Shown here piece by piece: positions 37,481-42,024 of a stretch of DNA of 64,000 bases. The notes under the pieces are model-generated. The model was not told the DNA's origin. It searched no databases and saw nothing but the letters and a program-made list of their open reading frames with translations. Source of the DNA: Crassaminicella thermophila (GTDB lineage: Bacteria > Bacillota > Clostridia > Peptostreptococcales > Thermotaleaceae); assembly GCF_008152325.1 (NCBI RefSeq), contig NZ_CP042243.1, positions 2,609,026 to 2,673,025 on the forward strand, given 5' to 3'. A program made the position numbers and the translations under genes. The first letter of the stretch is position 1; every line of letters begins with the position of its first letter.

Positions 37481-39217
37481 TTATAATGAAAAAGTGTTGA
37501 TGATTTCCATTACACCATTTTTTACATTAATTAATTGCTCTTTAGCATCTTCTAAGCTCTCTCCCATAACAGAAAAATAAATTTTAACCTTTGGCTCTGT
37601 TCCTGATGGTCTTACACAGAACCAACTATCATCTGTAAATGTAAAGTGTAATACATTAGACTTTGGAAGAGTCAAAATCTCTTCCTCTCCTGTTGATAGA
37701 TTTATCCCTTTGCTAATATCATAATCTCTAAAAACTTTAATCTCTTTTCCTGCAATAGACTTTGGTGTATTATCCCTTAGATAAGCTAATATCCTTTGAA
37801 TCTTTTCAAGTCCTTCTTTTCCTTTTAACGTAATAGATACCAAATCTTCTTGGTAATATCCATATTTTTCGTAAAGTTTCATTAAGGCATCATACAAAGT
37901 CATACCCTCAGACTTATAATATGCCGCCATTTCACAAATAAGCATTGATGCAATAACAGCATCCTTATCCCTTACAAAGGTACCCGCTAAATACCCATAG
38001 CTTTCTTCATAGCCAAATAAGAATGTTTTCTCCTTATTTTCTTCAAACTCCTTCATCTTTTCTCCAATGAATTTAAAACCTGTTAATGTATCCAAGGTTT
38101 CTACTCCAAAAGATTTTGCTATTTTTTCTCCCATTTTGCTTGTAACAATAGTCTTAATAATCACACCATTTTCAGGAATACTATTTCTTTCCTTCATGCT
38201 AGATAATAGATAATCAATAAGCAATGCACCTGTTTGATTTCCTGTTAGTACCTGATATTTTCCTTCATTATTTTTAACAACAACCCCAACTCTATCACAA
38301 TCAGGATCTGTTCCAATTATCACATCTGCCCCATGCTTTTTAGCTAACTCCATTGCCAACGTAAAAGCTTCATGCTCTTCAGGATTAGGAGATTTTACTG
38401 TGGAGAAATTCGGATCAGGAATTTCTTGCTCATTTACTACAATAACATTTTCAAAGCCAATTTCATTAAGTACCCTCCTTACAGGCATATTTCCTGTCCC
38501 ATGAAGAGGTGTATATATTATTTTCATATCCTTCATACGCTCTATAACTTCTTTTCTTAAAACTAAGCTTTTTACCTTATCTATGTACTTTTTATCTACT
38601 TCCTCTCCAATGATTTCTAACAAACCTTTATCTAAAGCATCTTCTTTATTTATGTACTTAACATCTGCATAATCTTTAATATCTTGTATCTCTCTTATAA
38701 TCTTCTCTGCTGTATCTGGTACAATCTGTCCTCCATCTTCTCCATAAACCTTATAACCATTATATTCTGGAGGATTATGACTAGCAGTAATAACAATCCC
38801 TCCTGCACAACCAAGCTCCCTTACAGAAAAAGATAATTCTGGCGTTGTTCTTAAAGATTCAAACAAATATGCTTTTATACCATTTGCAGCAAGTACTAAA
38901 GCTGCCGTTTCTGCAAACACATCTGATTTGTGACGACAATCATATGCAATCACAACCCCTTTATTTTTTACAGCCTCTACTGTTTTTAATAAATAATTGG
39001 CAAATCCTTGTGTAGCTTTTCTAACAACATATTCATTCATTCGATTTGTACCAGCTCCAATAACTCCACGAAGTCCTCCTGTACCAAACTCAAGATCTTT
39101 ATAAAAACGTTCCTCTATTTCCTTCTCATCATTTTCTATATTCTTTAGTTCAGCCTTTGTTGCCTCATCAAAGTATGGATTACTTAACCAATAATTATAC
39201 TGATCCTTATAACTCAT
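37481..39217 (-). CDS. pgcA: Phosphoglucomutase/phosphomannomutase family phospho-sugar mutase
   Basis: A 578-residue alpha-D-phosphohexomutase of the PgcA type, converting glucose-6-phosphate to glucose-1-phosphate and so feeding UDP-sugar synthesis. The phosphoserine loop is VITASHNPPEYNGYK (about 141-155), the metal loop is IIGTDPDCDRVGV (about 303-315), the sugar-binding loop is FGYEESYGY, and the phosphate-binding loop is VRPSGTEPKVKIY near the C-terminus. The start follows AGAGGGG. The nearby galU is broken, so the UTP step would need another copy. Confidence 0.93.
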   Translation of the reverse strand: MSYKDQYNYWLSNPYFDEATKAELKNIENDEKEIEERFYKDLEFGTGGLRGVIGAGTNRMNEYVVRKATQGFANYLLKTVEAVKNKGVVIAYDCRHKSDVFAETAALVLAANGIKAYLFESLRTTPELSFSVRELGCAGGIVITASHNPPEYNGYKVYGEDGGQIVPDTAEKIIREIQDIKDYADVKYINKEDALDKGLLEIIGEEVDKKYIDKVKSLVLRKEVIERMKDMKIIYTPLHGTGNMPVRRVLNEIGFENVIVVNEQEIPDPNFSTVKSPNPEEHEAFTLAMELAKKHGADVIIGTDPDCDRVGVVVKNNEGKYQVLTGNQTGALLIDYLLSSMKERNSIPENGVIIKTIVTSKMGEKIAKSFGVETLDTLTGFKFIGEKMKEFEENKEKTFLFGYEESYGYLAGTFVRDKDAVIASMLICEMAAYYKSEGMTLYDALMKLYEKYGYYQEDLVSITLKGKEGLEKIQRILAYLRDNTPKSIAGKEIKVFRDYDISKGINLSTGEEEILTLPKSNVLHFTFTDDSWFCVRPSGTEPKVKIYFSVMGESLEDAKEQLINVKNGVMEIINTFSL

Positions 39218-39350: not shown

Positions 39351-41192
39351 TTAACTTATTCTCGTATATGTAGGTACCATATGCTCAATATAATCTTTTA
39401 CATCTTCATGATCACTCATAAGAATTTCTTTTAACCTAGTAAGTTCTGCTGTTAATAGTTTATAATCCATAAATATGGGTTGTCCAATAAATATCTTATT
39501 ATGCCTTGTTTCCTGTAAACCTTCTTCATCCATTAACAATTCCTCATATAGTTTTTCTCCTGGCCTTAATCCTGTAATTTCAATATCTATATCTACATAA
39601 GGTTCAAACCCTGATAATCTAATTAAATTTTCTGCTAGATCTATAATTTTTACTGGTTCACCCATATCTAAAACAAATATTTCTCCACCTTTTGCCATTG
39701 CACCAGCTTGTATTACTAGCTGCACTGCTTCTGGTATAGTCATAAAATATCGAGTAACTTCAGCATGCGTAACAGTAACTGGACCACCTTTTTCAATTTG
39801 TCTTTTGAATAATGGAATCACACTCCCATTACTTCCAAGTACATTTCCAAACCGAACAGCAACAAATTCTGTTTTACTTTTTCTACTCATACACTGCACA
39901 ATCATTTCTGCAACCCGCTTCGTTGCTCCCATTATATTTGTAGGATTTACTGCTTTATCAGTAGATATCAGTACAAACTTTTCTACTTTATATGTATCTG
40001 CACATTCTGCTACATTTAGTGTTCCAAATACATTATTTTTTATAGCTTCCTGTGGATTTGCTTCCATCAATGGTACATGTTTATGAGCCGCTGCATGAAA
40101 TACTACATTCGGCTTATATTTTGAAAATATCTCTTCCATTCTTTTTCGATCTCTTACAGATGCAATCAACACTTCTAAGTTTAATTCAGGATGATTTCTG
40201 ATAAGCTCATTTTGAATATCATAAGCATTATTTTCATATATGTCTAAAATCAAAAGTTTTTTAGGGTTGAAAGTCGCAATTTGCCTACACAACTCTGAAC
40301 CAATAGAGCCTCCTCCACCAGTCACCAAAACCGTTTTATTTTGTAAATATACACTCATTTCCTCTAAATCAACCTTTACAGGCTCTCTTCCTAACAAATC
40401 TTCTATAGCTACATCTCTTATTTGCTTAATGCTTACATTTCCATCAATCAATTCATACATTCCAGGAACAATCTTAAGTTTGCATTTTGTTCTACTGCAT
40501 TCTTCTAATATTGCTCTTATCTCTTTCTTTGAAGATGATGGTATTGCAATAATAATTTCATCTATTTTTTTTCTTTCTGCAACTTTTTTAATATGATATC
40601 GATCTCCTAAAACAGGTACCCCATTTATTTTTCTACCTAGCTTTGCATCGTCATCATCTATTACAGCAATAGGTATACTATTTAGTTCTTCGTGATTTTT
40701 TAGTTCCTGTATCACCATTGCTCCCGCTTGACCAGCCCCGACAATCATGACTCTTTTTAAGCCTTTCTTACTACCCATCCCATTATTTCGTATTCTTCTT
40801 GCAGCTCTATAACTAAATCTAATACCACCTATTAGAATAATATCTAATATAAAGGTTAAAATATAAATACTACGGGGTAAATGTTGTTGGATTATAAATG
40901 TATAGCTAAGTGTAGCAGCAGTTGCTACAAAAGATGTGGTAATAATTTGAACAAGTTCTTCTATACTTGCATATTTCCATAAGCTATTATACATACCAAA
41001 AATATAAAATATAATGAGTTTAATTCCCGTTAAAGTTAGTACATTCTGAATGAATACATCAAAATACTTAGCAGATTGTACTCCGTGTATAAAGTTGCCA
41101 TCAAATCTCAATACAAAGGCTAATATAAACGCTAAATTTATTGCTATAATATCTGCAAGTATAAGTAAGGTACTATAAATTTTTTTACGCAT
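39351..41192 (-). CDS. Membrane nucleotide-sugar 4,6-dehydratase (CapD/EpsC/PglF-like)
   Basis: A 613-residue protein with four N-terminal membrane helices (about 1-125), a first Rossmann domain with VGAGQAG (about 151-157) and a C-terminal short-chain dehydrogenase domain beginning TGGGGSIGSELCRQI (about 292). The active site reads STDKAVNPTNIMGATKR, with Met in place of the usual Tyr, as in PglF-type UDP-GlcNAc 4,6-dehydratases. Product would be UDP-4-keto-6-deoxy-GlcNAc, the substrate for the DegT aminotransferase at 55363. The start follows GGAGTTGAC. It is the last gene of the locus; the pseudogene stretch lies upstream. Confidence 0.9.
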   Translation of the reverse strand: MRKKIYSTLLILADIIAINLAFILAFVLRFDGNFIHGVQSAKYFDVFIQNVLTLTGIKLIIFYIFGMYNSLWKYASIEELVQIITTSFVATAATLSYTFIIQQHLPRSIYILTFILDIILIGGIRFSYRAARRIRNNGMGSKKGLKRVMIVGAGQAGAMVIQELKNHEELNSIPIAVIDDDDAKLGRKINGVPVLGDRYHIKKVAERKKIDEIIIAIPSSSKKEIRAILEECSRTKCKLKIVPGMYELIDGNVSIKQIRDVAIEDLLGREPVKVDLEEMSVYLQNKTVLVTGGGGSIGSELCRQIATFNPKKLLILDIYENNAYDIQNELIRNHPELNLEVLIASVRDRKRMEEIFSKYKPNVVFHAAAHKHVPLMEANPQEAIKNNVFGTLNVAECADTYKVEKFVLISTDKAVNPTNIMGATKRVAEMIVQCMSRKSKTEFVAVRFGNVLGSNGSVIPLFKRQIEKGGPVTVTHAEVTRYFMTIPEAVQLVIQAGAMAKGGEIFVLDMGEPVKIIDLAENLIRLSGFEPYVDIDIEITGLRPGEKLYEELLMDEEGLQETRHNKIFIGQPIFMDYKLLTAELTRLKEILMSDHEDVKDYIEHMVPTYTRIS

Positions 41193-41289: not shown

Positions 41290-41436
41290 TTACCTTTTTG
41301 TTATTGCAACTTCATCTAAAGCAATATTCTTTGTTTCTTTTTCAATCACCTTTAAAAGATACTTTAAAAACTCACTTCTCACCGCAAAGCAAACTCTACC
41401 GTAGCTTCTAAAAATCCTAATTTATTTCCAACATCA
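41290..41436 (-). pseudogene. galU: galU, C-terminal remnant
   Basis: Reads DVGNKLGFLEATVEFALR and, after a frame change, EFLKYLLKVIEKE, which is the end of UTP-glucose-1-phosphate uridylyltransferases. A TGA follows FALR in the first frame. The central two thirds of galU (about 190 residues) are missing; an intron fragment takes their place. Confidence 0.75.
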
Positions 41437-41822
41437 ATCCCGAATTTCATAACTTCGAATCTTCCTTTTCGGTGGTTTACCTTGCAAATAGCAAGCAGAA
41501 CCTTTCGTATCCTGTAGATCTCTAGACCCGTACATTCACCCCCTCGTCAGACCTTTGTGGTCATTCTCACCATAGGTATCTTTTCAGCCTTCCGGCCTAT
41601 CTCATACCATATTATTTTTCAAGAACTTAGGTATGATTCAGCCGACTTCACCTGGCTTCATACATAAATAATCTACTACTTATTTATGCATGCAGTAGTA
41701 TTAGAGGAGTAGTTTCAACTCAACATGACGGCTTCGTTCCTACTCTCGATGAATCAGTTGCGATTTACAAGTTGTAAATCCCTCCCTTTCGTGCCTACGC
41801 ACTTATAGGAGACGTGTCGCAC
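41437..41822 (-). mobile_element. 5' fragment of a group II intron inside galU
   Basis: The fragment begins GTGCGACACGTC at the galU junction, matching the GUGYG 5' end of bacterial group II introns, and continues with domain-I-like blocks such as GTGCGTAGGCACGAAAGGGA, AGGAACGAAGCCG, GGCCGGAAGGCTGAAAAG and GACCACAAAGGTC. There is no reverse transcriptase, no domain V stem and no 3' end, so it cannot splice. AATATGGT near 41617 could be an EBS1 pairing with ACCATTTT of the upstream galU exon with one mismatch. The assignment rests on pattern recognition. Confidence 0.65.
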
Positions 41823-42024
41823 CAAAATGGTCCTCTATACTTTTCTTATTTCGACCATTTATGATTAGTATCTCTTCTACACCTGATTTTACAGCTTCTT
41901 CAATAATATATTGAAGCGTAGGCTTGTCTACTATAGGTAGCATTTCTTTGGGTTGTGCTTTAGTAGCAGGTAAAAATCTAGTACCAAGACCTGCTGCTAG
42001 TATTATGGCTTTACGTACTTTTAT
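41823..42024 (-). pseudogene. galU: galU, N-terminal remnant
   Basis: Reads [18 protein letters not shown], then [19 protein letters not shown] and up to SIEDHF, the nucleotide-binding N-terminus of GalU, and stops at the intron junction inside the codon after Phe. The expected start ATG is ATA. With the missing middle, the gene cannot work. Confidence 0.85.

What the first reader, a model, noticed from the sequence alone, without database searches (positions are those of the whole stretch)
41290..42024. galU split by a group II intron 5' fragment, with the centre of the gene deleted
The N-terminal piece ends exactly at a GTGCGAC intron start inside a codon, and the C-terminal piece resumes about 190 residues later with frameshift. 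The intron lacks its 3' half. A simple history is intron insertion followed by a deletion that removed the intron end, its reverse transcriptase and the centre of galU. The original start codon is now ATA. The polysaccharide locus thus lost its own UDP-glucose supply.
Basis: partly seen in the sequence, partly recalled or inferred. Interest (0 to 1): 0.55.

Follow-up and report, generated by a model that had tools for sequence, protein, structure and literature searches.

The report
Intron-broken galU relic
A spare copy of a sugar-activating gene was entered by a self-splicing mobile intron and later lost its middle together with most of that intron, leaving a dead gene; this is an ordinary kind of genome decay, and an intact copy of the gene remains elsewhere in the genome.

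Summary
On the minus strand, 42024-41823 is the first 202 nt of galU (start codon ATA instead of ATG), 41822-41437 is the first 386 nt of a group II intron, and 41436-41290 is a frameshifted galU 3' end resuming at codon 252/253. About 553 nt of galU are missing. The intron identity is firm: Rfam RF02004 at 109.5 bits, and about 72% identity to an ltrA-bearing intron. Exon-binding sequences in the fragment pair with the galU bases upstream of the splice site, so the intron most likely inserted here by its own targeting; one deletion from inside the intron into galU explains the rest. No partner half and no group II reverse transcriptase were found in the genome, so trans-splicing is unlikely. 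Most bacterial intron copies are truncated, so this is ordinary. More interesting, in passing: ORF-less introns of this class sit at one site in pcrA in two related genera.

The parts
41823..42024 (-). galU 5' piece, nt 1-202, open frame, start codon replaced by ATA (42022-42024)
   Evidence: 88.6% protein identity to own intact GalU over residues 1-70; 4 of the 57 positions invariant in 11 intact GalU proteins are changed, the start included
41823..41828 (-). IBS1 (ATTTTG), last six exon bases before the intron
   Evidence: pairs 6 of 6 with EBS1, G-U allowed
41829..41833 (-). IBS2 (GGACC)
   Evidence: pairs 4 of 5 with EBS2
41437..41822 (-). group II intron 5' fragment, 386 nt, GTGCGAC start, ends 15 nt after EBS1
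41581..41762 (-). RF02004 group-II-D1D4-5 match, full model
   Evidence: 109.5 bits, E 5.9e-23
41516..41520 (-). putative EBS2
   Evidence: best-pairing column for exon -11..-7 across 13 aligned introns
41452..41457 (-). putative EBS1
   Evidence: best-pairing column for exon -6..-1; 64 of 72 pairs in 12 introns, 0 of 20000 permutations reach it
41290..41436 (-). galU 3' piece, from nt 756/757, frameshifted (TGA at 41379-41381)
39351..41192 (-). open nucleotide-sugar epimerase/dehydratase-type gene, downstream neighbour
   Evidence: best NCBIfam match PseB, below its cut-off
37481..39217 (-). open phosphoglucomutase-type gene
   Evidence: phosphohexomutase-family matches, all below their cut-offs

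Best explanation
This is a dead paralogue of galU in a polysaccharide locus. A group II intron (class matched by RF02004) inserted after galU nt 202 by base pairing of its EBS1/EBS2 with the galU target. Later one deletion, with no visible microhomology, ran from inside the intron's first domain to galU nt about 755. It removed the intron's active site (domain V) and about 185 codons, so neither splicing nor the enzyme is possible now. The deletion was about 0.9 kb if the intron was ORF-less and about 2.8 kb if it carried ltrA. Shown: the three pieces, the intron identity, the exon pairing, no partner half found, the intact second galU. Inferred: that the intron once spliced, that there was a single deletion, and that the ATA start and the frameshift are further decay.
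For: RF02004 at 109.5 bits. 71.7% identity over the fragment to a 2598-nt intron with a 601-aa ltrA in Lysinibacillus sphaericus. The EBS1 column pairs with the exon in 64 of 72 positions in 12 introns; shuffled exon/intron pairs average 36.1 and 0 of 20000 permutations reach 64. The fragment pairs 6/6 (EBS1) and 4/5 (EBS2) at those columns. Intron end and galU 3' piece abut. Own genome: one fragment copy; no match to the class's intron protein; one RVT_1 gene, retron-like; one domain V of another kind at another locus. Intact galU, 289 codons, at G000:C1:486258.
Against: The EBS columns were picked as the best of all columns in the same data, and several introns are near-duplicates (L050/L051, L017/L053, L043/L045, L054/L055), so the permutation overstates the evidence. 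In the fragment alone, 7 of 381 windows pair 6/6 with IBS1 and 14 of 382 pair at least 4/5 with IBS2. No relative with an intact intron at this galU site was found, so insertion then deletion is inferred. The genus has only this genome in the collection.
Confidence: 0.93

Rival explanations
1. Split intron: the 5' half in galU pairs in trans with a 3' half elsewhere in the genome, and trans-splicing restores a galU message.
For: The fragment keeps its 5' splice site and EBS1/EBS2, and one lone domain V match exists in the genome (L002).
Against: The L002 domain V lies beside a formate/nitrite transporter gene (TIGR00790 above cut-off), not galU sequence, and its plasmid relatives are other introns. 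The Rfam domain V model finds this class's own domain V in five distinct introns (L016, L017, L043, L044, L045; 53-63 bits) but nothing else in G000. Apart from the intact copy, the matches covering the GalU centre are at most 40% identical. No group II maturase was found.
Confidence: 0.01
2. The fragment came in with a larger recombination, or was inserted already truncated, rather than by insertion of a whole intron followed by deletion.
For: Locus order differs from two relatives: galU lies before the epimerase gene here and after it in L031 and L048, so rearrangement has occurred nearby.
Against: The exact 5' intron boundary with matching IBS1/IBS2 in galU argues for targeted insertion at this site. 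Incomplete reverse transcription would lose the 5' end, not the 3' end (recalled mechanism, not from a call).
Confidence: 0.05
3. The galU was already a pseudogene (ATA start, frameshift) before the intron and the deletion. This is compatible with the main explanation and differs only in the order of events.
For: All lesions are present together and their order is unknown.
Against: The 5' piece is open over 67 codons with changes at 4 of 57 invariant positions, which suggests recent decay; the order stays open.
Confidence: 0.3

Closest known systems
Truncated group II intron copies in bacterial genomes (PMC4028801 and PMC4424553, passages seen)
   [quoted passage not shown] this is one more.
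   Different: It keeps the 5' end and loses the 3' part, and its breakpoint coincides with loss of the host gene's centre.
ltrA-bearing introns of the same class, e.g. Lysinibacillus sphaericus plasmid NZ_CP014644.1 (L016)
   Same: The whole 386-nt fragment aligns at 71.7%; same GTGCGA start and same EBS columns.
   Different: L016 is 2598 nt with a 601-aa intron protein and domain V; the fragment has neither.
ORF-less introns of the same class in pcrA of family relatives G009 and G012
   Same: Same RF02004 family, same EBS1 column, chromosomal-type host gene.
   Different: They are complete (735 and 726 nt, with domain V) and their exons would join in frame.

Membership tests
Group II intron | 5' end GUGYG | tested here: met
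   GTGCGAC at 41822; consensus GUGYG as stated in PMC4028801
Group II intron | conserved 5' domain sequence and structure (Rfam D1-D4 model) | tested here: met
   RF02004 full model, 109.5 bits against a gathering score of 34.5
Group II intron | EBS-IBS pairing with the 5' exon | tested here: met
   EBS1 6/6, EBS2 4/5, in columns shared with other introns of the class
Group II intron | catalytic domain V and domain VI | tested here: not met
   no RF00029 match in the window, although the model detects it in five introns of the class; so this is a remnant, not a working intron
Group II intron | intron-encoded reverse transcriptase/maturase (absent in ORF-less members) | tested here: not met
   none in the fragment; none of this class in the genome
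GalU (UTP--glucose-1-phosphate uridylyltransferase) | conserved N-terminal stretch | tested here: met
   53 of 57 invariant positions kept in residues 1-67
GalU (UTP--glucose-1-phosphate uridylyltransferase) | complete open frame with start codon | tested here: not met
   ATA start, codons ~68-252 missing, frameshifted 3' end

The most novel reading that the evidence does not exclude
The fragment is the relic of an ORF-less, splicing-only intron that once lived in galU and whose splicing the gene depended on, as the pcrA introns of related genera appear to be; its deletion then shows how such dependence ends once a paralogue makes the host gene dispensable.
Probability: 0.2. Interest if true: 0.3.

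Novelty: new member of a known kind. Interest (0 to 1): 0.13.

Why it matters
It records one intron insertion in a metabolic gene and its later loss in a genome that keeps a second galU. By itself it changes nothing in the field; it could serve as a marker for comparing strains of this genus. The related pcrA introns noticed in passing matter more, since ORF-less introns in bacteria are described as rare (PMC4424553, passages).

Tried and rejected
Searched the own genome for a second copy of the fragment (none), for a domain V partner (one, of another kind and locus) and for an intron reverse transcriptase (only an RT whose best NCBIfam match is retron St85 RT, 155.3 bits, below the cut-off of 235; it also matches the group II RT model at 79 bits, far below that cut-off of 300). 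Looked for the same arrangement in the genus (only this genome is held), in the 16 genomes of the family, G000 included (12 of 16 match the 5' piece; none of the 11 intact galU genes read out, nine of them from family relatives, is interrupted), and in the order (10 of 297 genomes, G000 included, match the fragment; a lower bound, since only 2 candidates per genome were scored and related introns in G006 appeared only). Phage records gave 2 partial matches. A separate small RNA in the fragment has no support: the other four Rfam matches listed there (mir-16, Avashort thermometer, Mahella-1, sR30) are all below their gathering scores. The single genome-contig scan gave 4 loci; one, Lutibacter sp. 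B2 (L031, 83%), has an intact galU nearby; the other three (25-41% identity) were too distant and not used further. The paper search for 'group II intron' with galU found 25 papers, 10 of them listed; none of the 10 titles or abstract starts concerned an intron in galU, and the other 15 were not seen. The general search on truncated introns listed 15 of 24 papers; of these only PMC4028801 was opened, for passages.

In the EBS test the row L044 was left out of the EBS1 count because the alignment was cut at 410 nt and L044 carries a longer insert; its own site (CGTATT against AATACG, from the output) pairs 6/6 by eye.

Full report
Observation. Read on the minus strand, the region is: galU 5' piece (42024-41823), group II intron 5' fragment (41822-41437), galU 3' piece (41436-41290). 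The 5' piece is open over 67 codons and begins with ATA where 11 intact galU genes (own copy, nine family relatives, Lutibacter sp. B2) have ATG. Of the 57 positions invariant among those 11 in the first 67, four are changed, the start included. The 3' piece begins at galU nt 756/757. It reads DVGNKLGFLEATVEFALR and then a stop (41381-41379), and continues in another frame to a TAA at 41290; the alignment shows a 10-nt gap there. Missing are galU nt 203 to about 755.

Identity of the insert. Rfam RF02004 (group-II-D1D4-5) matches 41762-41581(-) over its full length at 109.5 bits, E 5.9e-23 in a scan of the whole window. In plasmid records, 60 of 72,556 hold a match to the 735-nt query; the 20 rows listed all end at query 588 = 41437 and begin at 199-203, the intron start being 203 (40 records not listed). 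The best, from Lysinibacillus sphaericus, is an intron of 2598 nt with a 601-aa ltrA. So the right-hand breakpoint is a real truncation: relatives continue into further intron sequence and this one continues into galU.

How it got there. I aligned the first ~400 nt of 13 introns (the fragment, L016, L017, L043, L044, L045, L050-L056) and asked which column pairs best with each intron's own 5' exon. For exon -6..-1 the best column scores 5.33 of 6 on average (12 introns); the next is 3.77 and the mean over columns is 2.42. In this column the fragment's CGAAGT (41457-41452) pairs 6/6 with galU ATTTTG (G-U allowed). With exons shuffled among introns, 64 of 72 pairs falls to a mean of 36.1 and none of 20000 shuffles reaches 64. 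For exon -11..-7 the best column scores 4.46 of 5 (13 introns), with 4/5 for the fragment. Cautions: the columns were selected on the same data, some introns are near-duplicates, and in the fragment alone 7 of 381 windows pair 6/6. Even so, the fragment carries the targeting words of its class at the right places and they fit galU, so it most likely inserted here as a whole intron by its usual route.

What happened next. The sequence lost is contiguous in the ancestral order (intron 3' part, then galU 203-755), so one deletion is enough. The junction reads ...TTCGGGAT|TGATGTTGG...; the relatives' galU has TATGATGT or TACGATGT there, and the other introns that align there continue after GGGAT (GGAAT in two) with A, C or G, none with T, so no microhomology is visible. 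The deletion size depends on the intron: about 0.9 kb if it was like the 726-735-nt ORF-less members, about 2.8 kb if it was like the 2598-nt ltrA member. Of five other introns compared, two ltrA-bearing ones (L016, L017) align with the fragment over its full length in one piece, the ltrA-bearing L044 in two pieces, and the ORF-less L043 and L045 only in parts; this leans weakly to an ltrA-bearing source.

Can anything still work? No group II domain V was found beside the fragment. The genome has one domain V match, at C1:2481395, next to a formate/nitrite transporter gene; its plasmid relatives are other introns. The same model detects domain V of the fragment's class in five distinct introns at 53-63 bits, so the lack of a partner is informative. 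The only RVT_1 gene is retron-like: best NCBIfam match retron St85 RT, below cut-off, next to a protein whose only match is the retron St85 effector family, also below cut-off. A 607-aa intron protein of the right class finds nothing in G000. The intron is therefore most likely dead and cannot be rescued in trans. The galU lesion is not a metabolic loss by itself: an intact galU of 289 codons is at C1:486258 (TIGR01099 420.5 bits), and the phosphoglucomutase-type gene beside the relic is open. Four of the 15 family relatives also have two or more matches to the galU 5' piece.

Comparison with what is known. [quoted passage not shown] A 5'-retaining fragment at a deletion edge is one more such copy. 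No account of an intron in galU was seen (10 of 25 papers listed, not opened), but the novelty would be only of place.

Side finding. In two related genera (G009 and G012) an ORF-less intron of this class sits at the same site in pcrA (NCBIfam's best match for the pieces read on both sides is PcrA, TIGR01073), splitting the Gln codon of VGDDD|QSIYSWRGAD. The two introns are 90% identical. Joining the exons gives single frames of 732 and 728 codons. G009 shows no match to the class's intron protein, and its only RVT_1 match is a 1241-aa frame at 30 bits, of which the 854 residues held match no NCBIfam family, the group II RT model included. pcrA in G000 is uninterrupted (1097-codon open frame). 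PMC4424553 (passages) calls ORF-less introns rare in bacteria and names C.te.I1 as the sole known one without a related intron protein in the genome, as of 2015. Searches for 'group II intron' with pcrA (6 of 7 listed) and with UvrD and housekeeping genes (2 listed) showed no relevant title.

Noticed in passing
L043:3116-3850 (G009:C18:733615-734349) and L045:3552-4277 (G012:C5:11051-11776): ORF-less group II introns (735 and 726 nt, with domain V) at the same site inside pcrA in two genera of the family; exons would join in frame. In G009 no group II maturase was found (draft of 70 contigs), so splicing of its only close pcrA copy would have to do without one.
   Followed up: partly
L002:1501-1577 minus (G000:C1:2481395-2481471): A second intron relic in the same genome: a domain V match with upstream sequence similar to a Natranaerobius record where a group II maturase-domain protein is annotated, beside a formate/nitrite transporter gene; another kind of intron.
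   Followed up: partly
L003:282-3269 (G000:C1:2988445-2992080): Retron-like pair: a 326-aa RT and a 365-aa protein, closest to the retron St85 RT and effector families but below both cut-offs, next to an IS21-type IstB gene.
   Followed up: partly
window 4926-31374: Four rRNA operons in a row on the minus strand with dense tRNA arrays, including repeated tRNA sets.
   Followed up: no
L044:936-4173 (G012:C27): A RAGATH-18 RNA (RF03064, 78.8 bits) lies upstream of a replication-initiation-type gene (RepM/RepE matches, below cut-offs) that seems to be interrupted by an ltrA-bearing intron of the same class.
   Followed up: partly
G006:C1:960885, 1099837, 2387254, 2667916: Four copies of an intron protein of this class (77% identical to G012's) with identical scores in one relative, suggesting recent spread.
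   Followed up: no
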